From: a virus | Length of the DNA stretch: 64,000 nucleotides | IMG/VR virus record: IMGVR_UViG_3300031576_000002 | Span: 124,001-188,000 of that record | Reading direction: 5' to 3' (one strand) | Shown here: one piece after another, positions 22,317 to 37,602 of the stretch | Position numbering within the stretch: position 1 is the first letter of the stretch | Layout: every line of letters starts with the position of its first letter | Position numbers and translations under genes: made by a program | The notes under the pieces: generated by a model | What the model saw: only the letters and a program-made list of their open reading frames with translations | The model's database searches: none | What the model was told of the DNA's origin: nothing

Positions 22317-22688
22317 GCACGTAGCATAACATGAAAATACCCCGAAAGTGAAGGTTCTGATCTTGGGTAAAGAAAGGGTGCTCCGGACCTCCGGTGAATA
22401 CCTTGAGCCGGTTGTTCTGCGTTACGTCCTCGACCATCTCCTCCGCATTGGCGTAAGGATTCTCGTCCACATACTCCACTTCAAACTTAGAAGTAATCCT
22501 GCGGAAAAGCTTGTCAAGATGAGCTACGAGTGCTTGGTAGGACGGCACCGCAGACGCATCGTGAGCAGGCGCTTTCTCGTAAGCAGTAGCAACGGCTTCG
22601 AGGTATTCATCCCAGTCCACTGGCATCAACTTGGCCAAACGCTCAAGTAACTGCGCGTTTTTCTCTGGCGCAGGTGTATAGTAGTCAG
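22294..22688 (-). pseudogene. middle part of a gene split by HNH3 and by a TnpB element
   Basis: Frame PAPEKNAQLLERLAKLMPVD to HPFFTQDQNLHFRG. The annotated-looking ATG at 22695 lies in the element's inverted repeat, so the real start is across the element at 23940. The 3' end runs on into HNH3's upstream region (stop at 22294). Real function unknown; the family is seen in other phages. Confidence 0.7.
22652..22682 (+). promoter_or_regulatory. plus-strand phage promoter, GTGTATAGTAG type
   Basis: Plus strand GCGCGTTTTTCTCTGGCGCA then GGTGTATAGTAG; -10 TATAGT at 22677-22682. It would drive the plus-strand gene at 23939 but is now separated from it by the TnpB element inserted just after the -10. 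It lies inside the split gene's coding sequence on the other strand. Confidence 0.5.
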
Positions 22689-23914
22689 CATGCATGACTG
22701 CTTAAGCCGCCACTTGCATAGCAGGTAAGCAGCCTTCTCGTTTCACAGAGGAACTTACAAGCGTATCCTCTCCACGAAGGGATAGCAGAGCCCGGTTTAA
22801 GACGTTTTTAGCCGCGTTGACATCTCTATCAAGGACCAAGCCACAAGCAGAGCAGATATGGACTCTTTCACTCAAACTCTTCTTCACAGTCATTCCACAT
22901 CCGCTGCACTCTTGGCTGGTGCCTCTGGGATTGACTTTTACCACTATCCTACCAGCTTCTTCCGCTTTGTAGGACAGCATGTGGAGCAACATCCCCATTC
23001 CAACATCTTTGAAGCTACGCCTGAATCCACGGCTGAGACCCTGGCTCATACCTTTCAGGTTCAAGTCTTCCACCGCAATCAGATCATACTCTTTGACCAA
23101 AGACTTAGACACTCCATCAAGAATATGCTTCCGAGTTCTTGTAACTTTCTGCCAAGCCTTAGCCAGTACCTTGACGGCTTTCCTTCTACGCTTAGATCCC
23201 TTCTGTCTCCTGGATACCGTTCTTTGAGCATGCTTGAGCTTCTTCTCGTTCTTGGCGTAAACACGTTGCCGCTCAATCAAGATGCCGTCTGAGGTAGCGA
23301 CTAGAGCTTGCATGCCTAGATCAATGCCAATGACTTTGCCAGTCTTGAGAAGAGGAGCTGGAAGCGGTAGCTCACAGGATAAGACGGCGTACCAGCCGTC
23401 AGCTTCTCTTTTGACTGTGACCTCTTTAACCTTGGCATCAGGCGGAAGCTCCCGATAAGGATTCCAGCGGAAGTGTCCCAGCTTGGAAAGATGTAGCTTT
23501 TTGCTGTCAAACTTGAAACCTGACTGATTGTATGTGAAGGAGTCGTACCGATCCCTACTCTTGAATCTGGGAAAGCCTGGCTTCTCTCCACGCTTGACTC
23601 TTCTGAAGAAAGCCTTGTACGTTTTGTCCAGTTTTTGAAGGACTGGGTGAAGAACTCTTGAATAGATCGTGTCATAGCCTTCTACCTGCTTTGAAACATA
23701 CTTAAGCTCTAGGCACTGATCGTAGAAGCTGAGAGTTCTATTATGCTGCTTCCACTCCAGGATTCGTTGTTCCAAAGCACAGTTGTAGAGGAAGCGGCAG
23801 AAATCCAGAAGCCGCTGGAGATTGATCTCCTGGGCCTTGGTAGGTTGGAGGCGGAACTTGTAGGAACGGCGCACGGCTAGAGTGTATCACAAGGGAGTTA
23901 AGGAATCACGCATG
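22689..23914 (-). mobile_element. TnpB-only transposable element, copy 1 (1226 bp)
   Basis: Boundaries set by 17-bp imperfect inverted repeats: 22689-22705 and 23898-23914 (CATGCGTGATTCCTTAA in tnpB orientation; 14 of 17 match). Flanked by 10-bp direct repeats TAGTAGTCAG (22679-22688) and TAGTAGTTAG (23915-23924), 9 of 10 identical. Removing the element and one repeat restores a continuous frame starting MAEPFTNYYTPAPEK. Same length and ends as the copy at 36048-37273. No transposase gene inside. Confidence 0.85.
22702..23874 (-). CDS. tnpB: TnpB RNA-guided nuclease, copy 1
   Basis: 390 residues from a GTG. OrfB_IS605-type: N-terminal RSYKFRLQPTKAQEINLQRL, RuvC-I Asp in GKVIGIDLGMQALVATSDG (about 183), RuvC-II Glu in IAVEDLNLKGM (about 265), zinc ribbon CSGCG/CSACG, RuvC-III Asp in LDRDVNAAKN (about 348). 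TnpB cuts DNA guided by an element-derived RNA. All catalytic residues present. The stop TAA lies in the right inverted repeat. Confidence 0.9.
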   Translation of the reverse strand: MRRSYKFRLQPTKAQEINLQRLLDFCRFLYNCALEQRILEWKQHNRTLSFYDQCLELKYVSKQVEGYDTIYSRVLHPVLQKLDKTYKAFFRRVKRGEKPGFPRFKSRDRYDSFTYNQSGFKFDSKKLHLSKLGHFRWNPYRELPPDAKVKEVTVKREADGWYAVLSCELPLPAPLLKTGKVIGIDLGMQALVATSDGILIERQRVYAKNEKKLKHAQRTVSRRQKGSKRRRKAVKVLAKAWQKVTRTRKHILDGVSKSLVKEYDLIAVEDLNLKGMSQGLSRGFRRSFKDVGMGMLLHMLSYKAEEAGRIVVKVNPRGTSQECSGCGMTVKKSLSERVHICSACGLVLDRDVNAAKNVLNRALLSLRGEDTLVSSSVKREGCLPAMQVAA

Positions 23915-23940
23915 TAGTAGTTAGTGAAGGGCTCGGCCAT
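23915..23940 (-). pseudogene. 5' stub of the TnpB-interrupted gene
   Basis: ATG at 23940 followed by GCCGAGCCCTTCACTAAC (M-A-E-P-F-T-N), then the element. The frame continues after the element as YYTPAPEKN. An in-frame TGA sits two codons before the ATG, confirming the start. No strong ribosome binding site is seen. Confidence 0.7.
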
Positions 23941-24406
23941 GAGTCAACCAGTAAAAAAAATCTCACACCGCTTCACTTGGAGCGACATCATCCGGGAGTC
24001 GGCATGGGCACAGTGGATTCGTATGACTCGGCCGCCAGGCTCGCGAATAACGCATACTCCGTGGGGGTGCATCCTCTCCGACATTCCTTCTGCCCAGCAG
24101 AAAATTGAAGCTCGAAAACTGCGCCGGGCTTACGAGTCTTGGATCGCCCAGGATGAAGAGCGTGCTCGTGACGCAGAGTTGTTCCGATTCTGGACCGCCG
24201 TGTTCCCTCCGCATCGCTTGCTCGTAGAGGTCACCGAAGCTTACGCGGCCGGCTTGCCGTACAAGAATATCCTCCGCGAGTACCGGCTACGGTTCAAAGT
24301 TCAGCCTCTCGGCTGGGCAAAGTGGGAAGCATTTGTTCGAGATCCGGAATCCGGCGGCGGAGTTCTCGTTCCATTCCGGGGTAGCCAAGAAGGAACGTCA
24401 CGATAG
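23939..24406 (+). CDS. hypothetical plus-strand protein
   Basis: 155 residues from ATG 23939; GAAGGG precedes as a weak RBS. Helical and charged (QQKIEARKLRRAYESWIAQD; LLVEVTEAYAAGLPYKNI). Its start codon overlaps the opposite-strand start of the interrupted gene, and its end overlaps the convergent minus gene by 113 nt. Its promoter is probably cut off by the TnpB element. Coding-like, family unknown. Confidence 0.5.
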   Translation: MSQPVKKISHRFTWSDIIRESAWAQWIRMTRPPGSRITHTPWGCILSDIPSAQQKIEARKLRRAYESWIAQDEERARDAELFRFWTAVFPPHRLLVEVTEAYAAGLPYKNILREYRLRFKVQPLGWAKWEAFVRDPESGGGVLVPFRGSQEGTSR

Positions 24407-25499
24407 CGTCTGGACTCTGAAGTACCACGTCTCTCCAAGAGAGCGGGTACTTGGAGTAGGTGAGCTTGATCCCCAGCTCTTCAAAGTTCAATCCAAGCGC
24501 TGGACCGAATTTACGAAACCGGGAAGGAAACTTTCCTATCTCCTCTTCAGGGATGTGCCCTTTGACGTCAAAAGCGAGCGATACGATCACTTCGCTATCC
24601 CTGAGACGGTACATGCCCACGGGTCCGCCAGAGGGCTTGAAAATGATGGATTCTTGATCGAACCAGTTTCCCAGCTCCACCGCATCACGCCACTCCACCC
24701 CTTCTACTAGAATCGACCGCTCCCGCTCAGCGTAGAATCCGTAGACTGGCGTCCAGGAGTACCCTCGACGTTCAAGCTCTGAAGTCAACTCTCCGTGGCG
24801 ACGCCGGTTCTCGGCCCTCGACCTGTTTTCCTTTTCAGTGCGCTCCTCGATCTCCCGATCCCGCCAACGGATCCTCTCCGGTCGCGGAGAGGTCTGAAAC
24901 TCCTTCTCTCGGTCACGCTGTCTCTCCCACTGTTCCGGTACCTTTGGATCGAACTTCACGGCTCTGGGGTCGGGGCGGTAAGCAGACAGAACCGTGTAGG
25001 CTGCGCCCGGCCGCTGAAGGTACTCCAGATCCGTCACGCTAATCCCCAGCAAAGCTATCGCCCGTCCGAGAATGCCGGCCTGCACCTTGGGCACGTTAGA
25101 CCGCCATCCCGATCCGGGCGGCTTCTCGCGCGGATCTTTGCTGACAACCATCTCCTCCCAGAATTCCCTTACGCCAGGGCCTAGCAGTTGCCGCATCGGT
25201 CGCACGGCTTCCATGGGAACGGTTGGATAGATGCCGTCCCCACCAAGCTGACCGCTGAGAAGATCAACTTCGACTCCACCCGGCAATAGATTCCAGTTGT
25301 GGACTTGCCCGTCTGGGAGACGGCCATAGGCGATCTTGCCGCCTAGCTCTTGCTGCACGGCAAAGGCCACAGCAAGCGAATCCTTGGCCGTCGCTCCTTG
25401 GCTGTGAACGAGGCGCTGTACCTCTTGAAGTAGCGGCACAAAGTCGGCTGGAACTTCTCGCCCCTGCCCCAGCAGACTCAGAGCCCTGGCAAGAATCAT
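24294..25499 (-). CDS. hypothetical multidomain protein
   Basis: About 401 residues from ATG 25499 (GGGAG RBS). N-terminal helices (ILARALSLLGQGREVPADF), a glycine/proline region, a long Arg/Glu-rich segment (RDREIEERTEKENRSRAEN) and a C-terminal globular part. The N-terminal half resembles helical linker proteins of phage polyvalent type. No motif recognised. Upstream gene ends 23 nt before. Confidence 0.6.
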   Translation of the reverse strand: MILARALSLLGQGREVPADFVPLLQEVQRLVHSQGATAKDSLAVAFAVQQELGGKIAYGRLPDGQVHNWNLLPGGVEVDLLSGQLGGDGIYPTVPMEAVRPMRQLLGPGVREFWEEMVVSKDPREKPPGSGWRSNVPKVQAGILGRAIALLGISVTDLEYLQRPGAAYTVLSAYRPDPRAVKFDPKVPEQWERQRDREKEFQTSPRPERIRWRDREIEERTEKENRSRAENRRRHGELTSELERRGYSWTPVYGFYAERERSILVEGVEWRDAVELGNWFDQESIIFKPSGGPVGMYRLRDSEVIVSLAFDVKGHIPEEEIGKFPSRFRKFGPALGLNFEELGIKLTYSKYPLSWRDVVLQSPDAIVTFLLGYPGMERELRRRIPDLEQMLPTLPSREAEL

Positions 25500-25521
25500 C
25501 ACGTCTCCCGAAAAGCCACGC

Positions 25522-25902
25522 TCAAGGCACAGGTAGGTAAGCCTTGGCCGCACTGACCAGGAGTACGCCAAAGGTCTGGCCTACCTTGCCGAGCAGCGCG
25601 TTCAGCTTCTCGCGGTCGCAGTTGCCCCGCTGAAGCGTCGCCAGGTCCGCCTTGGAGATCTCGATCCTGGCCTCGGGAGTCAGATTCTTCATGAGCAGGT
25701 CACGGGCTTCCTGGCTCATCTTGGCGCCGCGAATGGCGTGAACGATGTCAAACCAGATGTCCTGCGCGAACGCCTTGAGAAGATCCCGGATCTCAGGATC
25801 TTCAAGCATGCCCCCGATCTCGTCTTTGATCGTGTCCCGAAACCCGAGATCGTTGAGCAGAACGCCGAGCGTGCCCTTGATGTTGTCAAGCGAGTTAGCC
25901 AT
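25522..25902 (-). CDS. hypothetical helical protein
   Basis: 126 residues; alternating amphipathic helices with hydrophobic runs (TLGVLLNDLGFRD, FGVLLVSAAKAYLPV). Start overlaps the lipoprotein gene's end by 8 nt. A virion or membrane-associated role is possible but unsupported. Confidence 0.55.
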   Translation of the reverse strand: MANSLDNIKGTLGVLLNDLGFRDTIKDEIGGMLEDPEIRDLLKAFAQDIWFDIVHAIRGAKMSQEARDLLMKNLTPEARIEISKADLATLQRGNCDREKLNALLGKVGQTFGVLLVSAAKAYLPVP

Positions 25903-26476
25903 TCGATACCTCGGTTACGGGCTCCACGGCAGGAGCCGGCTCAGATGCAGGCGGGGGCTCCGCCGGTGGAATCGGCTCCACGGGTGCAGTTTCTTCCTTG
26001 AAGAGCAGATCAAACAGGCTCCCGAATACTCCGCCGAGGCCCTTATGGATACCGCCCCAGATCCCTCCCAGCAGCGCCAACGGGCCAGACTCGCGGTCCA
26101 AGTGCTCGACCACTTCCTTGGCCTTCAGCGCTTCAAGGCTCATCGCCTCCTTGGCTGGAGGGCACAGGTTGGAGTCTGCCGTACAGTCGCAGGCGGTCGC
26201 TTCCGTGCGAGCGGCGAGGTCATCGATCTCAACCGCGTAGATCCGGTAGGTCGATTCCTCTGGCATGGTCAGGGTGAGTACCTTCACCCTCGCCTCCCCG
26301 TACAGAGAGACGCGCGCTACGCACGAAGCGCACTCTTGGCAGTTCACCTCACTGTAGTCCTCTGCAAAGGCCCTGACGATGCTGACCGAGTTCGCAAAGC
26401 TCTCTTCCTGCTGAGCCGTGAACGCAGAACAGCTCGTGAGCAAAACGACGATGATCCCGGCGTAGATGGATCGCAC
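25895..26476 (-). CDS. lipoprotein with proline-rich tail
   Basis: About 193 residues from a GTG (26476) after a GGGGGG-type RBS. The signal segment RSIYAGIIVVLLTSC ends in a lipobox cysteine; two cysteine pairs (CQECASC) and later CDCTADSNLC follow, then a glycine-rich part and a Pro/Glu tail (PPAEPPPASEPAPAVEP). Likely a surface or periplasmic protein of the infected cell or virion. No family recognised. Confidence 0.65.
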   Translation of the reverse strand: MRSIYAGIIVVLLTSCSAFTAQQEESFANSVSIVRAFAEDYSEVNCQECASCVARVSLYGEARVKVLTLTMPEESTYRIYAVEIDDLAARTEATACDCTADSNLCPPAKEAMSLEALKAKEVVEHLDRESGPLALLGGIWGGIHKGLGGVFGSLFDLLFKEETAPVEPIPPAEPPPASEPAPAVEPVTEVSNG

Positions 26477-26510
26477 GGCACCCCCCTTTACCCTAGTATC
26501 GAGGAGTTCG

Positions 26511-27077
26511 CTACTGCCGCTTCGACGGTCGTTTCCTAGGCTTCCGGGATTCCACAAGTAACCTAGCTATCTCGTCGAACTCTTTCACAGCGTCGGGATC
26601 TACGATCGCCAGCAGCGCTCTCACCGTCGCCGGCTCGAAGGCTCCGGCGTCGTGCAACGCTTGGATGTCCCACAGGTCAAGAGGCTGGTTGGCGTAGAAC
26701 TTTGCCATGACCAGCAGTTCCACGGGAAAGGTAGGAGCGTTCGTCCCCCACAACGTCTTCTGCACGGGATGGTCGATCGCCGAGGCTTCGGGTTCGTCCT
26801 CGGCGAAGAGCACGTCTACACGTTCCTTCACCCCACTAGCACCTGGAGGAAGGGCGATGTAGTGGTGCGGCGCAAAAACACGGTCCACTTGGAACCCGGC
26901 TTCCCGCAACGTCTTGAGCACTCGCCCCCTATCTCCCGGGCGGAAGAATGCGTCTACGTCCGCCGTGTACCGCGCAACGCCGTGCGCGTTCACAGCGGCT
27001 CCGCCTCCGACGGCATAGTCGATGCCCGCAGGCCCGACTGCTTGCACCAGGAGCTTCAGGATCTCTGCGGCTGTCAC
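26511..27077 (-). CDS. nucleotidyltransferase (DUF6036/AbiEii-like)
   Basis: 188 residues. YAVGGGAAVNAHGVARYTADVDAFF carries the GG-x-A and DVD motif of minimal nucleotidyltransferases; KERVDVLFAED follows. A basic tail KPRKRPSKRQ ends it. Overlaps the next gene's end by 4 nt. Second nucleotidyltransferase in the window (compare 19696). Confidence 0.65.
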   Translation of the reverse strand: MTAAEILKLLVQAVGPAGIDYAVGGGAAVNAHGVARYTADVDAFFRPGDRGRVLKTLREAGFQVDRVFAPHHYIALPPGASGVKERVDVLFAEDEPEASAIDHPVQKTLWGTNAPTFPVELLVMAKFYANQPLDLWDIQALHDAGAFEPATVRALLAIVDPDAVKEFDEIARLLVESRKPRKRPSKRQ

Positions 27078-27277
27078 GGTTCTTTCTTAGACGGCTTACT
27101 CACAGCCTTGGCCTGGAATGCCTGCATGACCTTCTGCCGGATGAGCTGGGGATTCACGGCGACATCCACGAACCCCAAAATCTCGTAGGCCGATGTGAAC
27201 CCCGACCAGGTAATGCTCACGCCCTTCCCGTCTTCTTCCGAGATCGTGATCTTGCGCGTCTTGCTGTCTTTCTTCAA
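27074..27277 (-). CDS. small basic hypothetical protein
   Basis: About 67 residues from a TTG start (27277) preceded by GGAGG six bases away; a farther in-frame ATG at 27307 lies in the hairpin and is less likely. GVSITWSGFTSAYEILGF. Unknown; sits directly after the hairpin at 27293-27320. Confidence 0.5.
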   Translation of the reverse strand: MKKDSKTRKITISEEDGKGVSITWSGFTSAYEILGFVDVAVNPQLIRQKVMQAFQAKAVSKPSKKEP

Positions 27278-27292
27278 GGTATCCTCCAAATA

Positions 27293-27320
27293 GAAACGGG
27301 GACGCAAGCGTCCCCGTTTC
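27293..27320 (-). terminator. 13-bp perfect hairpin between two genes
   Basis: GAAACGGGGACGC followed after 2 bases (AA) by its complement. On the minus strand it follows the stop of the AT-hook gene and is followed by TATTTGG, a weak T-run, so a rho-independent terminator is plausible for that gene. Confidence 0.55.
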
Positions 27321-27339
27321 TCAAGCGCTGATAGCGGAC

Positions 27340-28116
27340 TCAGTCGTCGCTACCGTCATCGCCATCATCATCGTCGGTGCTGTCGTCGTCGTCACCATCA
27401 TCGTCCGACGCCTCCGCCTTGGCAGTGCCCTCGTCGTCCTCTCCGCCTCCCTCGGCTGCCTCCTCTTCCTTCACCTTCTTGGCCTTCTTGACCTTCTTGG
27501 GAGCTTCCTCCTCCTCCTCAGCCTTGGCCTTCTTCACCTTCTTGGGGGCCTCCTCCGGCGCCTCAGCGGCCTTGGCCTTCTTACCCTTGCCCGTGTACTC
27601 GCCCCGGCCAACCTTCCTGAGTTCGCCCGCGTCACAGGCACGCTTGAGGTGGCCACTCGCACCCACGGCTTCGATCTCGAAGTGCTTCGCCACGTCGGTC
27701 GGGCTCACGACGTCCTTCTGCGCAGAGACCCACTCCACGACGGCCGACATCTTGAGCCGCTTCTTCTCACTCTTTGCAACCTTCGGCTTCTCCGTACCGG
27801 CTGCCTTCACCTTGGCAGGCCGTCCGCGCTTTTTCGGCGCCTCGGTCGTCTCCTCCACCTTCACCTTGGCGGGCCGCCCCCGACGCTTCACGGGTGCGTC
27901 GCCGTCTCCCGTGGACTCGGCCGAAGCCGCCTTCACGAACGCGGAGACGAGCCCCAGTGGAATGCTGGACGCTCCCACGGTCACGTTGCCGGTGCCGTTC
28001 GCGCTGAACAGCACTTCGTCGCCCGCGTGCAGGGTCACTCGGCCACCCTTGGAGGACACGAGGCCGACGCCCTTCTGGTACTCCTGGCTCTTCGCAACTT
28101 CGATCCTGAAATCCAT
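27340..28116 (-). CDS. AT-hook protein with winged-helix-like core and acidic tail
   Basis: 258 residues. A small strand-rich N-terminus, then two AT-hook GRP motifs (KRRGRPAK and KKRGRPAK), a helical middle resembling a winged helix (MSAVVEWVSAQKDVVS, HLKRACDAGELRKVG), lysine-rich repeats (APKKVKKAK three times) and a tail of about 60 residues nearly all Asp/Glu/Gly/Ser. It resembles histone H1/HMG-type chromatin proteins. Likely a DNA-binding architectural protein. RBS GGGAGG. Confidence 0.7.
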   Translation of the reverse strand: MDFRIEVAKSQEYQKGVGLVSSKGGRVTLHAGDEVLFSANGTGNVTVGASSIPLGLVSAFVKAASAESTGDGDAPVKRRGRPAKVKVEETTEAPKKRGRPAKVKAAGTEKPKVAKSEKKRLKMSAVVEWVSAQKDVVSPTDVAKHFEIEAVGASGHLKRACDAGELRKVGRGEYTGKGKKAKAAEAPEEAPKKVKKAKAEEEEEAPKKVKKAKKVKEEEAAEGGGEDDEGTAKAEASDDDGDDDDSTDDDDGDDGSDD

Positions 28117-28134
28117 GCTGCCTCCCGATTAGAT

Positions 28135-28189
28135 GCGAACGACATGTTCGCTCTCACTATTGATTAGCTTGTACTCCCGTTGCTGTCAA
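28135..28189 (-). promoter_or_regulatory. promoter with operator-like palindrome for the AT-hook gene
   Basis: Minus strand TTGACA (28184-28189), 17-bp spacer, weak -10 TAATCA (28161-28166). Between the promoter and the ATG lies a perfect inverted repeat GCGAAC-N5-GTTCGC (28135-28151), an operator or mRNA hairpin candidate, 20 nt from the start codon. Confidence 0.5.
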
Positions 28190-28197
28190 GCCCAATC

Positions 28198-28428
28198 CTA
28201 GAAATTTCCTACATCGTGCTGATAGCCGAGGCTGTAGCGACGCGCAGAGGAATTGTTCGGGTAGCCTCGCTGCCCGGAAACGGTGGGACTCCCGTCCGTG
28301 TAGTAACACGGTACAAGCCAGATCGTGTCTACTCTCTGCTGCCGCCAGTACGCCAGCTCTCTGGCAACCTCTCCCGTCGGAATCTCGGCCCAGCCTGGAA
28401 TCTTGATGACAGGTGCGCTAGTCGTCAT
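28198..28428 (-). CDS. small hypothetical protein
   Basis: 76 residues from ATG 28428, coupled to the previous gene by ATGA. Contains PTGEVARELAYWRQQRVDTI and PCYYTDG. No family recognised. Confidence 0.6.
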   Translation of the reverse strand: MTTSAPVIKIPGWAEIPTGEVARELAYWRQQRVDTIWLVPCYYTDGSPTVSGQRGYPNNSSARRYSLGYQHDVGNF

Positions 28429-29192
28429 GCAGCCTCCGCGTACCACCCGCAGAACTGGCACCACGTTCCGCTTGAAGGATGGCGGTAGTTGTAGATCTTC
28501 TCCACGGGCTTACACTCTTCAGGAGTCGGGCGCGTCGCGTACCGCCCCCACCAATCCCCCGGGTAGCGCTGCGGGGGATTCTCGATCAGATCGAGACACG
28601 GCTGGTGCTCGGGGTAGAACTCTCGAATACGCCGGACAGCCTTGTGGTTATCCGGGTACACCAGCTTCCGCCGCGCCTCAATGATCTCGGAGTTGGCCTG
28701 CTCGATCGCAGCCTTCTCCTTCGTCCGCCGCTCATCAGAGAAGCGCGGATCATCGTGGAAGTGCTTCAACTCGTAGGAGGGTACCGGCCAGATTCCCGTA
28801 TACCCTCTCCGCGTACCGCTCGGGTCGTAGTAGCAGTGCTTGGAGTACTGGTAATGGCTGCTGATCCAAGCCTGAACGCGCGGATGGTCCTCGGGCAGAG
28901 GAATGTAGAGTTCCCGGTGCAGCGCGTCTCGCTTCGCCTTGTGAGCCTCCCAGGTCGTGAACGAGTCTCCGGCCGATTCGATCACAAGTCCGAGCAGGAT
29001 GAGCGTCGGACCTCTGGGAGGAGTGTTTCCAGCCGGGGTGTAGACGTTCTTTGTGAAGTAAGTCGGATAGCCCGGCGGGTCGCCGTAGCACCCATTTCCG
29101 GGATCCTGCTGGAGATGGTAGCTACCCGCAATCTTGGCGGTCGGGAGCTTCTCCAGGCGTTCCCGGTTGATCGTGCTCAAATCGTATTTCAT
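28425..29192 (-). CDS. hypothetical protein with C-terminal CxxC
   Basis: 255 residues from ATG 29192 behind GGAG. Many aromatic residues; KEKAAIEQANSEIIEARRKL is a coiled-coil-like stretch and TWCQFCGWYAEAA ends the chain with a zinc-type pair. Promoter of the GTATGATA kind lies just upstream, next to the tRNA. Confidence 0.6.
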   Translation of the reverse strand: MKYDLSTINRERLEKLPTAKIAGSYHLQQDPGNGCYGDPPGYPTYFTKNVYTPAGNTPPRGPTLILLGLVIESAGDSFTTWEAHKAKRDALHRELYIPLPEDHPRVQAWISSHYQYSKHCYYDPSGTRRGYTGIWPVPSYELKHFHDDPRFSDERRTKEKAAIEQANSEIIEARRKLVYPDNHKAVRRIREFYPEHQPCLDLIENPPQRYPGDWWGRYATRPTPEECKPVEKIYNYRHPSSGTWCQFCGWYAEAA

Positions 29193-29211
29193 GGAGTCTC
29201 CTTTCAAAAAT

Positions 29212-29245
29212 ATCATACAACCGCATTCAAAAAATTTCCGGTGGG
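29212..29245 (-). promoter_or_regulatory. phage promoter beside the tRNA gene
   Basis: Minus strand GGAAATTTTTTGAATGCGGT then TGTATGATA; -10 TATGAT at 29212-29217. It fits the recurring window motif (A/T patch about 20 nt before the -10). It starts at the tRNA 3' end and drives the gene at 29192. Confidence 0.5.
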
Positions 29246-29315
29246 CACGGAAGGAATCGAACCTTCGACCACTCGGTTAAAAGCCGAATGCTCTAACCAA
29301 CTGAGCTACGCGCCC
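29242..29315 (-). tRNA. tRNA-Lys(UUU)
   Basis: Cloverleaf with acceptor GGGCGCG pairing CGUGCCC, D-arm GCUC-GAGC, anticodon stem UUCGG/CCGAG with loop CUUUUAA (anticodon UUU), T-arm GAAGG-UUCGAUU-CCUUC, and discriminator A. CCA is not encoded. The 5' end overlaps the stop codon region of the gene at 29306. Phage tRNA-Lys often compensates for host cleavage of that tRNA. Confidence 0.9.
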
Positions 29316-30723: not shown

Positions 30724-30729
30724 AAGCGG

Positions 30730-30909: not shown

Positions 30910-30953
30910 CGTTTCCCCTTTTAGCCCGTAGGCCGGTTCGCAACCTTACCGCC

Positions 30954-31417: not shown

Positions 31418-31599
31418 GGCTGCGGACTTTCCTCGCGCTTTTTGAACTGCCCTGACTTCTTACTGAAGGGATTCTTCCCCATCCGATAGGGATGTAGCGG
31501 ACACTCTTTGCTCGTACAACGCTTGACCTCGCTGGGAGCACCGCCCATGCACATCAAGCATAGCGCGCGAATCGCTTTCTTGCGGGACGTGTAGATCAT
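31414..31599 (-). CDS. small Cys-rich phage protein (CLMCMGG type)
   Basis: 61 residues. IRALCLMCMGGAPSEVKRC, then CTSKECPLHPYRMGKNPFSK: a four-cysteine knuckle plus a conserved LHPYRxGKNP that recurs in phage hypotheticals. Function unknown. Confidence 0.75.
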   Translation of the reverse strand: MIYTSRKKAIRALCLMCMGGAPSEVKRCTSKECPLHPYRMGKNPFSKKSGQFKKREESPQP

Positions 31600-31605
31600 T
31601 TTCCC

Positions 31606-31926
31606 TCACGCTTGCGCGGGCTTGATGACCATCACGGGTACACGACCGCCGCGCATCTTCAGGCATTCGTCTATCCGCTCTGCCACGTCTGCGAGCTTTT
31701 CCGCGTCCGCTTCTACTCTAGCCAGAGCTTTGGCATACTCTGCCCGCTCGAAATCTGGAAGATTGCGCAACACGATCGTCGCCGCGCTTCGGCCCAGATA
31801 CACCATAGTAAGAGCCAGGTCGGATAGATCCAGATGTCCCTCATCTATGCAGGTGTTGACAACTGCTTCAAGCCTACTCGTGGCGCGCTGCATGTCCTCC
31901 TGATAGACATCCTCTTCTGAATTCAA
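31606..31926 (-). CDS. helical hypothetical protein
   Basis: 106 residues, mostly helix (LEAVVNTCIDEGHLDLSDLA; KALARVEADAEKLADVAER). ATGA-coupled upstream. No family. Confidence 0.55.
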   Translation of the reverse strand: MNSEEDVYQEDMQRATSRLEAVVNTCIDEGHLDLSDLALTMVYLGRSAATIVLRNLPDFERAEYAKALARVEADAEKLADVAERIDECLKMRGGRVPVMVIKPAQA

Positions 31927-32234
31927 AACGTCCTCCGATCCTCAAACTTGAAGCCTGCGGCTGCAAGGTGGGCGCTTACCTGCGCAATCGCGCGTGCTTG
32001 GTGAGCTGCGTACTCTACCGCGGTTCTGGGGATGTCCAGCTCCCGCTCTGAATTCTCGATCGCGTTCTCCAGGATCTTCCACGGCATCGACTCGACCAAG
32101 GCGAGGGTGTCTTCACTCACACGGCGGAAGATGAGTCCCGCGCTCGGATAGCCCCACATTTCTCCAATAGCGAGGAGGTTGACCTGGTTCTTCGTCCAGG
32201 CTACATGGACAGGGTTGAGAGCTTCAGTCGGCAT
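31923..32234 (-). CDS. hypothetical protein
   Basis: 103 residues (LLAIGEMWGYPSAGLIFRRV; AVEYAAHQARAIAQVSAHL). Overlaps neighbours at both ends in the operon. Unrecognised. Confidence 0.55.
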   Translation of the reverse strand: MPTEALNPVHVAWTKNQVNLLAIGEMWGYPSAGLIFRRVSEDTLALVESMPWKILENAIENSERELDIPRTAVEYAAHQARAIAQVSAHLAAAGFKFEDRRTF

Positions 32235-32544
32235 TTTTGACGGCCTCCCTGACGCTGTCCAGCGTCCGCTCGATATCGCTCAGACGATCTACGATCGGCT
32301 GGACGGCTTCGTTCACATCAGAAGGCTGAGCCGTACTTCCTATCTCGCCAGAGATGTCTTCAAGCCTTTCCAAAATCTTGTCGTAGTCACCCTCGACGCT
32401 GCGGATCCGGTCGCGCAGGTAGCTGAACTCCACCGCCATCCAGCGACGAAGTTGTTCGAGCGTCAGCTCTTCCGAATCGGCCGGCTGCACCGACGGCTGC
32501 AACGGCGACAGAACTGTAGGCTGGAGCTTTTCTGCTTTTTTCAT
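32224..32544 (-). CDS. coiled-coil hypothetical protein
   Basis: 106 residues with heptads EFSYLRDRIRSVEGDYDKIL, and LSDIERTLDSVREAV. Possibly a tail or oligomeric scaffold protein; no family. Confidence 0.55.
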   Translation of the reverse strand: MKKAEKLQPTVLSPLQPSVQPADSEELTLEQLRRWMAVEFSYLRDRIRSVEGDYDKILERLEDISGEIGSTAQPSDVNEAVQPIVDRLSDIERTLDSVREAVKNAD

Positions 32545-32551
32545 CGAGCCC

Positions 32552-32818
32552 TCAGTGCGCCATACACGGCGCTGATTTTGGATGCTTAGAAGAATCGTAA
32601 CGCAGGCGCAAAGTCCGGTAGAGCACGGACAAGTCCGCGTCTTCTGCGCCTCCTACTAGAATACCGTTCTTGTACACGTCGGCGCGGAATACTCGATCTG
32701 CGCCATCCCACCAGACCTCGGCCCAGAATGCTGCCGCTGCTACGGGAGCCCAGACCGCTTGTGCCCGGAGTTGCTCTGCGGTACCAGCTTCTACTTCCAG
32801 GCCGGCGATGTCGGTCAT
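32552..32818 (-). CDS. hypothetical protein
   Basis: 88 residues from ATG 32818 (GAGG RBS); the palindrome at 32856-32875 lies in the leader. WAEVWWDGADRVFRADVYK and a short C-terminal helix. Unrecognised. Confidence 0.6.
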   Translation of the reverse strand: MTDIAGLEVEAGTAEQLRAQAVWAPVAAAAFWAEVWWDGADRVFRADVYKNGILVGGAEDADLSVLYRTLRLRYDSSKHPKSAPCMAH

Positions 32819-32855
32819 GGTCAACGCACTCTCGGATAGCTGAGGAGGGCGCATG

Positions 32856-32875
32856 TAGTTGTGCCAGCACAACTA
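32856..32875. promoter_or_regulatory. near-palindrome related to the one at 2304
   Basis: TAGTTGTGC-CA-GCACAACTA: arms of 9 with 2 bases between. On the minus strand CTACCTAGTTGTG precedes it, as in the 2304-2329 palindrome. It overlaps the stop of the upstream gene and precedes the 32818 start. A shared operator or recombination site. Confidence 0.5.
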
Positions 32876-33148
32876 GGTAGGCTTAGCCTTTCTACTTTCT
32901 AACTGCTCCAGATCTTTATGCGCCGCTCTCAAGGCAACAACAGAGTCCTTCAGGAAGTCGGAGATCACTTCTCGCTCCACCTGAGTCGTCGCTGTATCGA
33001 ACTCTTGCCTGAGAAACTCCAACGCCTTCGTGTGCCGGTGGATCTGTCCAAGAATGCGTGCTCGTGCCTGGCGTATCTCAGATACTTTTCGCTTCTTCTT
33101 GGGCTCTTTCTTGGGCGGAAGTACCCGCGTGGACCCGAAGTCATTCAT
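32873..33148 (-). CDS. basic coiled-coil protein
   Basis: 91 residues. Lys-rich N-terminus PKKEPKKKRKVSEIRQARAR, then long amphipathic helices (LEFLRQEFDTATTQVEREV). The stop is inside the palindrome. Unrecognised. Confidence 0.6.
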   Translation of the reverse strand: MNDFGSTRVLPPKKEPKKKRKVSEIRQARARILGQIHRHTKALEFLRQEFDTATTQVEREVISDFLKDSVVALRAAHKDLEQLESRKAKPT

Positions 33149-33153
33149 GAAGT

Positions 33154-34383
33154 CTTCGGCGGCTGGAAACTATCACCTTTATGCGACAGAAGAGGCCGCT
33201 CTGTGCTACAGTATCGGCTATGATTCAGCTCACCCTCCGACTCAAGCTCAGGCCAACTCCTGAGCAGAAGTCTATCTTCTATACCACCTCGGAGCAGCAT
33301 ACTCAATCTTACAACTACGCCTGCAACTTTGGCTGGAAGAACAGCACTGCCAACCGGATCGAGATTCATCATGGTGTCTACCGTGCCCAAAGAGAGGCGA
33401 CTCAGCTTCCTTCTCAACTTGTCGTATCCAGCATTACCAGGGCTTCTGAATCTCTAGCCTCTGCCAAAGCCTTGAGAAGGAAAAAGAAGAAAGTAGCCTG
33501 TCCAAAGTCCAAACTCTGCCCCATCCGATACGATTCAAGATCCTCCACAGTCAATCTCAAAGAAGGCTTTGCCGCTCTAGCAACCGTATCCGGCAGACAA
33601 AGAGTCCAGTTCAAAGTCCCTGACTTTCAACTTCCATACATTGACTGGAAAGTCTGCTCTTCCGATCTTATCCGGAATAGGAAGGGTAACTACTTCCTTC
33701 ATGTCGTAGTCAGCCGTGAAGAGGAACCGTTCATACCCGTTAAGAGAACAGTCGGAGTCGATCTTGGTATCACGCATCCAGCCGTAACTTCCAAGAACAA
33801 GTTTTTGGGTAAGAGGAGCTGGAAGAACGTAGAAAGGAGAAACTTCAAACTGAGGCGTTCCCTTCAAGCCAAAGGCACAAAATCTGCCAAGAGACATCTT
33901 CAAAAGCTCTCTGGTAGACAGAAACGTTTCCGGCGTGACTGTGACCGTGTCTTGAGTAAGCAGTTGGTCCAGTCTTGTAAGAAGGGTTCTACCTTGGTAT
34001 TTGAAAACTTGAAAGAGATCCGATCCGGTAACTCCAAAGGCAAGAGGTTCAACCGGAAGCTCCACGGTTGGAGCTTTGACCAACTTCAAGCCTTTGTAGA
34101 GTACAAAGCAAAGATGAGAGGTATCCAAGTTGTTTACGTGGATCCCCGGTACACCTCTCAGAAATGCTCCAAGTGTAAGTTCAGGAGCAAGAAAAACCGG
34201 ATCTCTCAAAGTAGCTTCCAGTGTCGAAGCTGCGGGTTCAGGATTCATGCTGATCTCAATGCAGCTAGAAACATACGGAAGCGGTATCTTTTTACTCAGG
34301 CTAAAAGTTTGGGTAACGGGCTTATGTCAACAAGCCTAGTGCAGAGGTCAAAAGATCATCTGCAAGCTGCCTGCTTCGGCCGG
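33154..34383 (+). repeat. possible weak direct repeat flanking tnpB3
   Basis: CTTCGGCGGC at 33154-33163 and CTTCGGCCGG at 34374-34383 share CTTCGGC, about 1220 bp apart, close to the 1226-bp length of the other two TnpB elements. No 17-bp inverted repeats are seen here, so this may be chance. Confidence 0.25.
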
Positions 34384-34386
34384 TAG
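33220..34386 (+). CDS. tnpB: TnpB RNA-guided nuclease, copy 3 (divergent)
   Basis: 388 residues from ATG 33220; a farther in-frame ATG exists at 33181. RuvC-I Asp in TVGVDLGITHPAVTS, RuvC-II Glu in LVFENLKEIRSG, zinc ribbon CSKCKFR/CRSCGF, RuvC-III Asp in IHADLNAARN. Clearly diverged from copies 1 and 2, but the leader CTCTGTGCTAC just before the start is shared with copy 2. No obvious inverted termini. Confidence 0.85.
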   Translation: MIQLTLRLKLRPTPEQKSIFYTTSEQHTQSYNYACNFGWKNSTANRIEIHHGVYRAQREATQLPSQLVVSSITRASESLASAKALRRKKKKVACPKSKLCPIRYDSRSSTVNLKEGFAALATVSGRQRVQFKVPDFQLPYIDWKVCSSDLIRNRKGNYFLHVVVSREEEPFIPVKRTVGVDLGITHPAVTSKNKFLGKRSWKNVERRNFKLRRSLQAKGTKSAKRHLQKLSGRQKRFRRDCDRVLSKQLVQSCKKGSTLVFENLKEIRSGNSKGKRFNRKLHGWSFDQLQAFVEYKAKMRGIQVVYVDPRYTSQKCSKCKFRSKKNRISQSSFQCRSCGFRIHADLNAARNIRKRYLFTQAKSLGNGLMSTSLVQRSKDHLQAACFGR

Positions 34387-34885
34387 TAGTTGATGCCAGA
34401 AAGCACTCCGGCTCTTCCGTCGCGTTCAGGTACAGGCAGCACACCTCCGTCCAGGGTCTGCCATCCGTATCGACCACTTCGGATTGCCAGCAAACCTTCT
34501 CCGGCTGGATCTCGGGACTATCGGTGTGGCAATCGAACGTACAATTCGGATTGACTCGATCGCAAGCGGACAAGAAGATCAGCAAACTGATGACCTTCAC
34601 CCACCTCATCCCGTTCCAGTACATTCCCTTCCCCCGCACTTCTGCCCACCAGCGTTCCACTACAGAATTGTTAAGATACGTCTCGGCCGAGTTGTGATTC
34701 AAGACTTCCTCTCCTCCTGCCGTGAAGACTCGAATCCGATTCCCGTAGCGTCCCTTTCCAGGAATCCGCCACCGGACGCCTCGCGGTTTCCGATCGGTGT
34801 TGCAGTAGCCTTGATCTATCTCAGCCCGCAGACCAAGGCCAGCCCCATTGATTTCGGCCGCGATAGTTTTCAATCGGCGCGACAT
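34322..34885 (-). CDS. basic protein with internal lipoprotein start; 3' end in tnpB3
   Basis: 187 residues. First half basic: GVRWRIPGKGRYGNRIRVF and SVVERWWAEVRGKG. A second ATG at about residue 91 starts MRWVKVISLLIFLSACDR, a lipobox signal, so a nested lipoprotein could be made from the same frame. Tail DGRPWTEVCCLYLN resembles the small lipoprotein at 55756. The last residues come from tnpB3 DNA, so the original 3' end was probably lost. Confidence 0.5.
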   Translation of the reverse strand: MSRRLKTIAAEINGAGLGLRAEIDQGYCNTDRKPRGVRWRIPGKGRYGNRIRVFTAGGEEVLNHNSAETYLNNSVVERWWAEVRGKGMYWNGMRWVKVISLLIFLSACDRVNPNCTFDCHTDSPEIQPEKVCWQSEVVDTDGRPWTEVCCLYLNATEEPECFLASTTTGRSRQLADDLLTSALGLLT

Positions 34886-34895
34886 GTTTTCAGCA

Positions 34896-35138
34896 CTAGG
34901 CGGCCGACTGCTCTTCCGTTGCCAATGCGCTAGCCGCGTTCTCTGCTTCCCACCGTTCCAGATCCACTTCGAACAGGCAGGTCTGCACGAACCCGATCAC
35001 GGCTTCGGCACCCCGCCGCTCCAGCTCGCTGTTCCACTTCGCCTTGCGCTTGTGCTCGACCTTGCCCTCTTCCCGGATGCGTCGGGCTTCCTTGGCCTTC
35101 TTCACCTTCTCCTGCTTGCGCGACTTGGACTTTCGCAT
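34896..35138 (-). CDS. small highly basic protein
   Basis: 80 residues; Lys/Arg/Glu-rich coiled helix (KQEKVKKAKEARRIREEGK), then a hydrophobic helix. RBS AGGAGG at 35147-35152, promoter upstream. Unrecognised; could bind nucleic acid. Confidence 0.6.
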   Translation of the reverse strand: MRKSKSRKQEKVKKAKEARRIREEGKVEHKRKAKWNSELERRGAEAVIGFVQTCLFEVDLERWEAENAASALATEEQSAA

Positions 35139-35158
35139 TTCAGTTGCCTCCTGATTCT

Positions 35159-35191
35159 ACTATACCGCGCCAATCTTAGAATTCCGCACCC
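35159..35191 (-). promoter_or_regulatory. phage promoter, GGTATAGTAG type
   Basis: Minus strand GTGCGGAATTCTAAGATTGG then GCGGTATAGTAG; -10 at 35159-35164. Drives the small basic protein gene with a 20-nt leader holding an AGGAGG. Confidence 0.65.
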
Positions 35192-35195
35192 CTGG

Positions 35196-35996
35196 CTATA
35201 TTTCTGTCCAGGCTCGAACCCGTTCTCGGCACTCCGCCAGATACCCCTCTTGCAGGTCCAGGAAGTGCCAGGACTTGTAAAGAATGAAAGGACTGTGCGA
35301 GGTTGCGATGACCTGGAAACGCTTCGCCAGTTTGGGAACGATCTCATTCCAGAGAACCATTTGATTCGGCAGGCTCAGGCTCATGTCAGGTTCATCGAGC
35401 AGAATCGTACTCGGGCCTGTCCGTGGAAGCGTCTTCACGTACTCCGAGAACGCTGTCCAGCCCTCTACCCACAGGCTGTTATATTTCCGATCTGGATTTT
35501 TTGTAAGGTCCGGAACTTGATCCAGCAACTCTGCGATTCTTTCAATCTTATGGATTCGCCGCTGTCCCTCGCTCGGCTTTTGCGCGATCTCCTGAATCTG
35601 GTCCTTCATCGAAGTCATGCCATCGGCAGAATTCTCGGCCCGGTCCACGAAGAAGGAAAGCCCGTCTCGATCCGCGGCTGCATTGAGAAAGGTTGGAGTC
35701 CCGTCCCATTCTATATTTGCAGTACACTGGCCCGGTGCTCGTATGGCTAAGCAGTCTGGAAGATTGGGCGGCTTCCTCCGCAAAACCCCGATCTCGATAA
35801 TGTCTCCGGGGTCAGGGTGTTTCGACCAGCCTCCTGTCGTGATCCCGCAGTAGACCCCCGTGATCTTGAGCGCAGTCGTCTTCCCGCACCCGTTCGGCCC
35901 AAAGAGAATGTTGACTCCGGGCTTGAACTTGAGCTTGCCCTTGAACGCAGGAAGCTGCGCGGCAAAGCCCGTCTTGACTCGGAAGGACTGGATCAT
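35196..35996 (-). CDS. OLD/RecF-like ATPase (AAA_21 type)
   Basis: 266 residues from ATG 35996. Walker A ILFGPNGCGKTTALKI, signature region near the middle, Walker B STILLDEPDMSLSLP and the H-loop VIATSHSPFIL: the architecture of ABC-type DNA ATPases of the OLD/RecF group, without a TOPRIM nuclease. Such proteins act in DNA repair or abortive-infection systems. Its promoter gives TATAGT 7 nt before the ATG. Confidence 0.8.
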   Translation of the reverse strand: MIQSFRVKTGFAAQLPAFKGKLKFKPGVNILFGPNGCGKTTALKITGVYCGITTGGWSKHPDPGDIIEIGVLRRKPPNLPDCLAIRAPGQCTANIEWDGTPTFLNAAADRDGLSFFVDRAENSADGMTSMKDQIQEIAQKPSEGQRRIHKIERIAELLDQVPDLTKNPDRKYNSLWVEGWTAFSEYVKTLPRTGPSTILLDEPDMSLSLPNQMVLWNEIVPKLAKRFQVIATSHSPFILYKSWHFLDLQEGYLAECRERVRAWTEI

Positions 35997-36003
35997 CGGA
36001 CGT

Positions 36004-36034
36004 ACTATACAGCGCGCTTCCAAAAATACGCACC
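36004..36034 (-). promoter_or_regulatory. phage promoter for the ATPase gene
   Basis: Minus strand GGTGCGTATTTTTGGAAGCG then CGCTGTATAGTAC; -10 at 36004-36009, only 7 nt from the ATG, so the transcript would be nearly leaderless. It begins 4 nt after the original stop of the upstream gene, now interrupted by TnpB copy 2. Confidence 0.65.
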
Positions 36035-36047
36035 TATCCCGTCGAGC

Positions 36048-37273
36048 CATGCGTGACTCCTTAAGCCCTCTGTGCTACCATCCAGCCATGCGGCGTTCCT
36101 ACAAGTTCCGGCTTCAACCGACCAAGGCTCAGGAGATCAATCTCCAGAGGCTCCTGGACTACTGCCGCTTTCTCTACAACTGCGCTTTGGAGCAGCGTAT
36201 TACAGAATACAAACAGCATAAGAGGACTCTCAGCTACTACGATCAAGCCTTAGAACTTAAGCACGTATCCAAGCAGGTAGAAGGCTACGACACAGTCTAC
36301 GCCAAAGTCTTGCAGGTTGTCCTTCAAAAACTGGATCTAGCTTACAAGGCTTTCTTCAGAAGGATCAAGCGTGGAGAGAAGCCGGGCTTTCCACGGTTCA
36401 AGAGTAGGGATCGGTACGACTCCTTTACCTACAACCAGTCTGGTTTCAAGTTTGACAGTCAAAGGCTGCATCTTTCCAAGCTGGGCCATTTCCGCTGGAA
36501 TCCTTATCGACAACTTCCACCAGACGATAAGGTCAAAGAGGTCACAGTCAAAAGAGAAGCCGACGGTTGGTACGCAGTCTTATCCTGTGAGCTACCCCTT
36601 CCAGAACCTCTTCCCGCGACTGGAAAGGTCGTTGGTATTGATCTAGGCATGCAAGCTCTAGTTGCTACCTCAGATGGAATCGTAATTGAACGCCAACGTG
36701 TCTACGCCAAGAATGAGAAGAAGCTCAAGCATGCTCAGAGAACGGTTTCCAGAAGAAAGAAAGGCTCTAACCGTAGAAGAAAAGCAGTCAAGGTATTGGC
36801 TAAGGCTTGGCAGAAAGCTACAAGAACTCGGAAGCATATTCTTGATGGAGTGTCTAAGCAGTTGGTACAGAACTATGATCTGATTGCGGTTGAAGACCTG
36901 AACCTGAAAGGGATGAGTCAAGGGCTCAACCGTGGATTCAGGCGTAGCTTCAAGGATGTCGGAATGGGGATGTTGCTTCACATGCTGTCCTACAAAGCGG
37001 AAGAAGCTGGTAGGATAGTGGTGAAAGTAGATCCCAGAGGAACCAGCCAGGAATGTAGTGGATGCGGAGCAACTGTGAAGAAGAGTTTGAAAGAAAGAGT
37101 TCATAACTGCTCTGCTTGTGGCTTGGTCCTTGATAGAGATGTCAACGCGGCTAAAAACGTCTTAAGCAGGGCTCTGCTATCCCTTCGTGGAGAGGATACG
37201 CTTGTAAGTTCCTCTGTGAAGCGAGAAGATTTCTTAAGTGCTGCTCAGGCAGCGGCTTAAGCAATCACGCATG
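36048..37273 (+). mobile_element. TnpB-only transposable element, copy 2 (1226 bp)
   Basis: Inverted ends 36048-36064 (CATGCGTGACTCCTTAA) and 37257-37273 (15 of 17 match). Flanking direct repeats CCCGTCGA at 36038-36045 and 37274-37281. The insertion cuts the 3' end of the 37602 gene: after excision the frame reads GGDSTG-stop. No transposase inside. Same length as copy 1. Confidence 0.85.
36088..37260 (+). CDS. tnpB: TnpB RNA-guided nuclease, copy 2
   Basis: 390 residues, nearly identical in layout to copy 1: GKVVGIDLGMQALVATSDG, IAVEDLNLKGM, zinc ribbon CSGCGATVKK/CSACG, LDRDVNAAKN. Starts at an ATG (copy 1 uses GTG). A longer in-frame extension upstream to 35860 is not coding-like. The stop TAA is in the right inverted repeat. 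Active residues are all present. Confidence 0.9.
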   Translation: MRRSYKFRLQPTKAQEINLQRLLDYCRFLYNCALEQRITEYKQHKRTLSYYDQALELKHVSKQVEGYDTVYAKVLQVVLQKLDLAYKAFFRRIKRGEKPGFPRFKSRDRYDSFTYNQSGFKFDSQRLHLSKLGHFRWNPYRQLPPDDKVKEVTVKREADGWYAVLSCELPLPEPLPATGKVVGIDLGMQALVATSDGIVIERQRVYAKNEKKLKHAQRTVSRRKKGSNRRRKAVKVLAKAWQKATRTRKHILDGVSKQLVQNYDLIAVEDLNLKGMSQGLNRGFRRSFKDVGMGMLLHMLSYKAEEAGRIVVKVDPRGTSQECSGCGATVKKSLKERVHNCSACGLVLDRDVNAAKNVLSRALLSLRGEDTLVSSSVKREDFLSAAQAAA

Positions 37274-37602
37274 CCCGTCGAATCGCCGCCTGCCCAGGGA
37301 CTTCGCCAGTGGGGGAGGGGTAGGAGGTCATCCGACCGCAGCTCGATCGACATCTCTAGGGCTTGGTACTCGTAGCACTCCAAGCCCGCCAGCCACCAGC
37401 CAGAGGCAATCAGCTCCTCTTCCGAGGCGTCGGTAGGATCCTGCATGCAAACGTCGAATACGATCTGCGGCTCGTCAGCCATACCGCAGGTCGTCCGCTG
37501 AAGGGCCAGGATGGCGCAGAAGAAACCGGCCGGCGCCTTGGCCTCCGCCAACATCGGAATCCGCAAGGTGTGCGCAAGTAGGAGTAAGGCTAAGGCACGC
37601 AT
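37234..37602 (-). CDS. secreted hypothetical protein, 3' end altered by TnpB insertion
   Basis: Signal peptide-like N-terminus MRALALLLLAHTLRIPMLAEA. Then AGFFCAILALQRTTCG and a cysteine-containing domain (VCMQDPTDASEEELIASG). The last dozen residues come from the inserted element; before insertion the chain ended WAGGDSTG followed by TAG. Product is otherwise unknown. Confidence 0.6.
   Translation of the reverse strand: MRALALLLLAHTLRIPMLAEAKAPAGFFCAILALQRTTCGMADEPQIVFDVCMQDPTDASEEELIASGWWLAGLECYEYQALEMSIELRSDDLLPLPHWRSPWAGGDSTGMRDCLSRCLSST

What the first reader, a model, noticed from the sequence alone, without database searches (positions are those of the whole stretch)
22679..37283. Two 1226-bp tnpB-only elements with inverted termini and target-site repeats
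The elements at 22689-23914 (minus) and 36048-37273 (plus) are the same length, carry only a full-length tnpB, and end in 17-bp inverted repeats (14 and 15 of 17 match). Each is flanked by a short direct repeat: TAGTAGTCAG/TAGTAGTTAG and CCCGTCGA/CCCGTCGA. Removing each with one repeat restores a sensible gene. IS200/IS605-type tnpB elements, as known, have subterminal hairpins and no target duplication, so this pair suggests a different mobilisation route, perhaps in trans by a DDE-type transposase or by homing-like repair.
Basis: partly seen in the sequence, partly recalled or inferred. Interest (0 to 1): 0.9.

Follow-up and report, generated by a model that had tools for sequence, protein, structure and literature searches.

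The report
TnpB genes in transposon-like inverted-repeat cassettes
A large bacterial virus carries three copies of a small RNA-guided DNA-cutting gene (tnpB), each packed between inverted repeats and flanked by a 10-base duplicated target, the marks of an ordinary cut-and-paste transposase that bacterial tnpB elements are reported not to carry.

Summary
A third 1226-bp copy lies elsewhere in the same 205-kb phage record. All three have 17-bp terminal inverted repeats (14, 15, 14 of 17 matching) and 10-bp direct repeats in one exact register (9, 8 and 9 of 10 matching; 26/30 summed, against a mean of 7.9 ± 2.4 at other registers). Copies differ by 13-15% of bases, so the insertions look old and the repeat mismatches look like decay.

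The ends satisfy the published ISH8-subgroup signature of the IS4 family (CAT...T15, 10-bp duplication) and part of the IS231 signature. The left end has no IS605 hairpin. The right end keeps an IS605-type ωRNA hairpin whose 3' strand is the right inverted repeat. TnpB keeps its D-E-D site and is under purifying selection.

Best reading: non-autonomous cassettes (like MIC231) moved in trans by a DDE transposase, probably IS4-type, carrying a TnpB/ωRNA unit. No transposase was found in the phage, and no empty site or outside copy was found, so the mobilising enzyme is inferred. Eukaryotic Fanzors are known inside DDE transposons, including IS4-like ones in an algal virus; I found no report of this for bacterial TnpB.

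The parts
22679..22688 (.). copy 1, direct repeat (TAGTAGTCAG)
   Evidence: 9/10 match to 23915-23924 in the shared register
22689..23914 (-). copy 1 of the 1226-bp TnpB cassette
   Evidence: 86% identical to copy 2, identical length
22689..22705 (-). copy 1 right terminal inverted repeat; contains the tnpB stop codon and the 3' end of the predicted omegaRNA scaffold
   Evidence: TTAAGCAGTCATGCATG, 14/17 to the left end
22694..22824 (-). copy 1 predicted omegaRNA (guide-RNA scaffold) region
   Evidence: homologous position to canonical TnpB right ends; terminal hairpin folds
22702..23874 (-). copy 1 tnpB (GTG start, 390 aa)
   Evidence: Pfam OrfB_IS605, Cas12f1-like_TNB, HTH_OrfB_IS605
23881..23886 (-). 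copy 1 putative -10 box TACACT, 6 nt before the start codon
   Evidence: same spacing in all three copies; sequence inspection only
23898..23914 (-). copy 1 left terminal inverted repeat CATGCGTGATTCCTTAA
23915..23924 (.). copy 1, direct repeat (TAGTAGTTAG)
36038..36047 (.). copy 2, direct repeat (CCCGTCGAGC)
   Evidence: 8/10 match to 37274-37283
36048..37273 (+). copy 2 of the 1226-bp TnpB cassette
36048..36064 (+). copy 2 left terminal inverted repeat CATGCGTGACTCCTTAA
   Evidence: 15/17 to the right end
36076..36081 (+). copy 2 putative -10 box TACCAT, 6 nt before ATG (leaderless-type)
   Evidence: sequence inspection
36088..37260 (+). copy 2 tnpB (390 aa); RuvC acidic residues aligned to ISDra2 TnpB
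37138..37268 (+). copy 2 predicted omegaRNA region overlapping the 3' end of tnpB and the right inverted repeat
   Evidence: 2/42 four-fold-site changes in element positions 1121-1180 over the three pairs; terminal hairpin
37257..37273 (+). copy 2 right terminal inverted repeat TTAAGCAATCACGCATG; includes the tnpB stop codon
37274..37283 (.). copy 2, direct repeat (CCCGTCGAAT)

Best explanation
Each 1226-bp unit is a non-autonomous transposable cassette: a TnpB RNA-guided nuclease gene with its own omegaRNA, lying between terminal inverted repeats of about 17-20 bp (CATGYGTGAYNNCTTAAGCC). A DDE transposase supplied in trans, most likely of the IS4 family (ISH8/IS231-type ends), bound these repeats and pasted the unit with a 10-bp staggered cut. 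Gap filling then duplicated 10 bp of target. Shown: three copies, common ends, 10-bp duplications in register, no left-end IS605 hairpin, retained right-end omegaRNA-type hairpin, intact and selected TnpB. Inferred: the IS4-type transposase, trans action, and that the omegaRNA is made. The right repeat and the omegaRNA 3' end are the same bases, so one sequence would serve both transposase binding and guide-RNA folding; the guide would start at or just before the element end and run into the flank. Whether TnpB helps the cassette persist, as in IS605 elements, or is only a passenger is open. The flanks left of the duplications share no motif that could serve as a fixed TAM.
For: Third copy with the same ends and its own 10-mer duplication. 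Register test 26/30 against mean 7.9, sd 2.35, next best 15; per-copy chance 6.6e-4 to 6.7e-5. Published IS4 table: ISH8 ends CAT-----------T-----, repeat 10 bp; IS231 ends CAT-------AA--TAA---, 10-12 bp (PMC2266710). Ours have CAT at 1-3, T15, TAA at 15-17, 10 bp. Control TnpB elements of other phages, plasmids and virus contigs, and the two unrelated TnpBs in this phage, score at most 20 in the inverted-plus-direct-repeat scan (20 from one AT-rich locus; null maximum 19), against 23, 21 and 23 for the copies. Purifying selection: 90-111 third-position against 20-32 first- or second-position differences per pair. A canonical relative in Thermus phage phiLo has a large left-end hairpin that is absent here. 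MIC231 is a precedent for trans-mobilised cassettes (PMC3913671).
Against: No DDE_Tnp_1, Transposase_mut, rve or Y1 domain in the phage and no convincing YREK match. No IS with these ends was found in viral contigs; host genomes could not be searched properly. IS231's AA at 11-12 is not matched, and the ISH8 signature is only four fixed bases, so the family call is weak. No empty site was seen in any relative. Only three copies, all in one genome.
Confidence: 0.68

Rival explanations
1. A DDE transposase of a family other than IS4 (or an undescribed one) moves the cassettes; the resemblance to IS4 ends is chance.
For: The ISH8 signature has few fixed bases; IS231's AA at positions 11-12 is missing. 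No IS4-like transposase found.
Against: Both the end signature and the duplication length agree with one published subgroup; duplication of about 10 bp is described there as typical of IS4 relative to neighbouring families.
Confidence: 0.18
2. They are decayed IS200/IS605-type (IS1341-like) TnpB elements moved by a Y1 TnpA in trans; inverted ends and flanking repeats are accidental.
For: TnpB belongs to the ISDra2-like group and the right end keeps an IS605-type hairpin followed by TCAC, as in canonical relatives.
Against: No left-end hairpin, no common left-flank motif, 14-15/17 inverted ends and 26/30 direct-repeat matches in one register in three copies. IS200/605 insertion gives no target duplication (PMC8612924).
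Confidence: 0.06
3. Homing by TnpB: a guide-directed break in a recipient is repaired by copying the element, and the repeats come from filling in the staggered break.
For: TnpB makes staggered breaks with 5' overhangs (PMC8612924); copies keep an intact nuclease.
Against: The break lies 15-21 bp from the TAM, not at the element edge; expected duplication about 6 bp; the three sites share no target sequence, and homing does not create new unrelated sites.
Confidence: 0.05
4. TnpB was captured once between IS4-type ends and is now domesticated in the phage (for example against competing phages), the cassettes being immobile relics. This concerns present role and is compatible with the best explanation for origin, so the confidences overlap.
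For: Copies are 13-15% diverged and duplications decayed, yet protein-level selection persists; patches of identity between copies 2 and 3 suggest gene conversion.
Against: The predicted guides fully match only their own junctions in this phage, so no target is known; no functional data.
Confidence: 0.25

Closest known systems
MIC231 and other mobile insertion cassettes (IS231/IS4 family), PMC3913671
   Same: Inverted repeats around a non-transposase gene, target duplication, no transposase in cis; IS231A transposase mobilises MIC231A1 in trans.
   Different: Cargo here is an RNA-guided nuclease whose omegaRNA overlaps the right inverted repeat; the mobilising IS is unknown; found in a phage.
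Fanzor1 in IS4-type elements of Ectocarpus siliculosus virus-1 (ESvi-1A/1B, ESv-2 = ISvEsV1_1), PMC3627910
   Same: TnpB-family protein inside an IS4-like unit with about 18-bp inverted repeats and a target duplication, in a large DNA virus; some units carry only Fanzor.
   Different: Fanzor1 is a eukaryotic lineage, duplication 8 bp; here a bacterial ISDra2-like TnpB, duplication 10 bp, bacteriophage.
Fanzor2* captured by eukaryotic cut-and-paste transposons; SfAV Fanzor1 reRNA containing the inverted repeat and target duplication (PMC10711439)
   Same: The guide RNA's 3' part doubles as the transposase-recognised terminal repeat.
   Different: Those are eukaryotic; there the short duplication becomes part of the scaffold, here a non-fixed 10-bp duplication would fall in the guide.
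ISDra2 and other IS200/IS605 (IS1341-type) TnpB elements
   Same: TnpB sequence and domain order, right-end omegaRNA hairpin overlapping or following the tnpB 3' end.
   Different: No left-end hairpin; terminal inverted repeats; 10-bp target duplications; no TAM-like left flank.

Membership tests
IS200/IS605 (IS1341-type) element | subterminal hairpins at both ends | tested here: not met
   right hairpin present, none at left in any of three copies
IS200/IS605 (IS1341-type) element | no target duplication, no terminal inverted repeats | tested here: not met
   10-bp duplications and 14-15/17 inverted ends in three copies
IS200/IS605 (IS1341-type) element | fixed TAM at the left flank | tested here: not met
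   left flanks CTAACTACTA, CCCGTCGAGC, GGTGGAGCGG share nothing
IS607 element | no inverted repeats or target duplication; serine TnpA in autonomous forms | tested here: not met
   ends and duplications as above; serine recombinase itself not searched for
IS4 family, ISH8/IS231 subgroup ends | ISH8 ends CAT...T15 and 10-bp repeat | tested here: met
   table
IS4 family, ISH8/IS231 subgroup ends | IS231 ends CAT...AA(11-12)..TAA(15-17) | tested here: not met
   CAT and TAA met, AA not
IS4 family, ISH8/IS231 subgroup ends | DDE transposase with YREK motif in the element | tested here: not met
   only tnpB inside; no PF01609 in the phage. So not an IS4 IS; at most a derivative
Mobile insertion cassette (MIC) | inverted repeats plus target duplication around a non-transposase gene | tested here: met
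Mobile insertion cassette (MIC) | trans-acting transposase with matching ends | tested here: inconclusive
   none in phage or viral contigs; host genomes not searchable
TnpB RNA-guided nuclease | RuvC D-E-D and zinc finger | tested here: met
   alignment to ISDra2 TnpB, Pfam
TnpB RNA-guided nuclease | omegaRNA expressed and bound, cleaves TAM-flanked target | not testable with these tools
   only sequence conservation and folding

The most novel reading that the evidence does not exclude
A prokaryotic TnpB-omegaRNA unit has been captured by DDE (IS4-type) transposon ends so that the right terminal inverted repeat and the 3' end of the guide-RNA scaffold are one sequence under joint selection. 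TnpB would then support maintenance of a DDE cassette in a phage, a prokaryotic parallel to Fanzor capture.
Probability: 0.35. Interest if true: 0.8.

Novelty: new variant of a known kind. Interest (0 to 1): 0.62.

Why it matters
Bao and Jurka (2013, PMC3627910) argued against TnpB being a captured passenger gene because bacterial TnpBs occur only in IS200/605 and IS607 elements, and stated that TnpB-only elements lack inverted repeats and target duplications. Three cassettes here have both. If confirmed, TnpB's link to Y1 and serine transposases is not obligatory in prokaryotes. The capture of TnpB-family nucleases by DDE transposons, so far described for eukaryotic Fanzors, would have a bacterial counterpart in which the overlap of inverted repeat and guide-RNA scaffold can be studied. 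Library searches found no paper joining TnpB with mobile insertion cassettes, but the library is incomplete.

Tried and rejected
Empty sites: three viral-contig scans with the copy-2 neighbour ATPase, DNA polymerase and portal found no relative of this phage. Sister cassettes: protein scans gave at most 45% identity without such ends; DNA searches of phages and plasmids gave only short partial hits in Thermus and relatives. Terminal-repeat pattern scans of viral contigs gave 8 and 10 unpaired hits, within chance by my estimate. The genome-contig scan returned one 32% relative. Searching host clades was impossible without a genome handle. No Rfam match to the omegaRNA region. Predicted guides (element end plus flank) match only their own junctions fully in the phage. 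Pair covariation of the hairpin on three sequences is not significant by shuffling (212/500), although sliding the pairing drops paired cells from 92% to at most 49%. Two other TnpB genes in the phage were checked for the same ends and lack them. A genome-wide leaderless-promoter signal was sought with a naive gene call and not seen.
Full report
What is there. The window is 124001-188000 of a 205,227-bp virus record. Its first 227 bases recur at its end, so it is probably complete. It encodes a DNA polymerase, a UvsX-like recombinase, a portal and a tail sheath, so it is a contractile-tailed phage. No near relative was found in the collections. The host is unknown.

A search of the whole record found a third copy of the same length, 85-87% identical, at 2734-3959 on the minus strand. 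A pattern search allowing two mismatches found the terminal repeat six times in the record, all at element ends. There are therefore no solo ends or miniature derivatives.

Ends and duplications. Oriented with tnpB, the left ends read CATGCGTGATTCCTTAA, CATGCGTGACTCCTTAA and CATGTGTGACGTCTTAA. The right ends are their inverse with 14, 15 and 14 of 17 matches. In copies 2 and 3 the match continues through AAGCC. The ten bases before CATG and the ten after the final CATG are CTAACTACTA/CTGACTACTA, CCCGTCGAGC/CCCGTCGAAT and GGTGGAGCGG/GGTGGAGCGA. The summed match is 26/30 at this register. Over 900 registers the mean is 7.9 (sd 2.35) and the next best is 15. In random 1226-bp pairs of this genome, 8 or more matches occur at 6.6e-4 and 9 or more at 6.7e-5. 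The copies differ from one another by 13-15%, so the four mismatches in 30 are what old duplications should show.

What the cargo is. Each element holds one 390-aa TnpB with HTH, OrfB and Cas12f1-like TNB domains. It is closest among solved proteins to ISDra2 TnpB, with aligned RuvC acidic residues. Differences between copies concentrate at third codon positions (90-111 per pair against 20-32 at each other position), so the protein is under purifying selection. Within element positions 1121-1180, four-fold sites are nearly invariant (0/14, 1/14, 1/14), against roughly 20-33% elsewhere by my sum of that table. That indicates a second, nucleotide-level constraint where the omegaRNA should lie.

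The omegaRNA and the right repeat. Canonical relatives (Thermus phage phiLo, Paenibacillus, Deinococcus) end ...GAGAAG (or close), hairpin, AGTNGTCAC or similar, then guide, and phiLo has a large left-end hairpin. The three copies end ...GAGAAG (GAGAGG in copy 3), hairpin with CTTAAG arms, NRTCAY, then GCATG, and have no left-end hairpin. The 3' arm of the hairpin and the TCAY motif are the right inverted repeat. The hairpin folds in all copies. With three sequences the covariation statistic is not significant, but sliding the pairing destroys it. The guide would therefore be GCATG plus flank, or the flank itself if the scaffold runs to the element end; this is undecided. If the guide begins with GCATG, it would not match an empty site, and IS605-style self-reinstatement would fail. 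If it begins at the flank, the TAM would have to lie left of the duplication, where the three sites share no motif.

Mechanism. Inverted ends with a fixed 10-bp duplication at unrelated sites are the mark of a DDE transposase. The IS4-family review gives ISH8-subgroup ends as CAT-----------T----- with 10-bp repeats, and IS231-subgroup ends as CAT-------AA--TAA--- with 10-12 bp (PMC2266710). The copies meet the ISH8 signature fully and the IS231 signature except AA at 11-12. IS231 transposase mobilises cassettes lacking a transposase (MIC231; PMC3913671). The phage has no DDE_Tnp_1, Transposase_mut, rve or Y1 domain, so any such enzyme would act in trans, presumably from the host. This step is inferred.

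Controls. Other TnpB loci from virus contigs, plasmids and phages (not every one of the fourteen gave a scorable gene) and two phiLo copies, scanned for inverted ends plus direct repeats, score at or near the null. The two other TnpB genes of this phage score at most 18. The configuration is specific to this family.

Sites. Copy 1 lies just downstream of a promoter-like GTATAGTA (+ strand) that otherwise precedes the + gene starting at 23939. Copy 2 lies upstream of the promoter-like motif of the ATPase gene 35196-36002 (-). Copy 3 splits two genes that overlap as ATGA. These are tolerable places, as expected for survivors.

Comparison with the literature. Bao and Jurka (PMC3627910) stated that TnpB-only elements lack inverted repeats and duplications and that bacterial TnpBs sit only in IS200/605 and IS607 elements. 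They reported Fanzor1 in IS4-type elements of an algal virus (18-bp inverted repeats, 8-bp duplication). PMC10711439 showed Fanzor2s captured by cut-and-paste transposons, and a Fanzor1 guide RNA that includes the inverted repeat. No held paper joins TnpB and mobile insertion cassettes. The case here is a bacterial, phage-borne counterpart: a new variant of a known kind.

Noticed in passing
window 33220-34386 (+): A fourth, unrelated TnpB gene 1.7 kb from copy 2, without the terminal or direct repeats; also preceded by a TANNNT box 7 nt before its ATG.
   Followed up: partly
G000:C1:37930-39075 (-), L011:17930-19075: A fifth TnpB, of another family, with apparent IS605-type hairpins at both ends (CCTCAAAATTTGAGG left, GTTTAGCACGGCTAAAC right).
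   Followed up: partly
window-wide; e.g. 36003-36010: TACTATAC occurs 16 times in the phage, 15 on the + strand (reverse-order control 1), i.e. GTATAGTA in front of minus-strand genes: probably a phage promoter -10 motif, often with an A-rich stretch upstream.
   Followed up: partly
all five TnpB genes: A TANNNT box lies 6-7 nt before the start codon, suggesting leaderless tnpB transcripts.
   Followed up: partly
L012:9811-11688 and L011:1115-4426 (minus strands): UvsX-like recombinase and portal genes appear to contain inserted endonuclease (intein-like) segments.
   Followed up: no
element positions about 821-1000, copies 2 and 3: Stretches with almost no differences between copies 2 and 3 beside diverged stretches suggest gene conversion between cassettes.
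   Followed up: no
window 29240-29315 (-): tRNA-Lys (TTT) gene.
   Followed up: no
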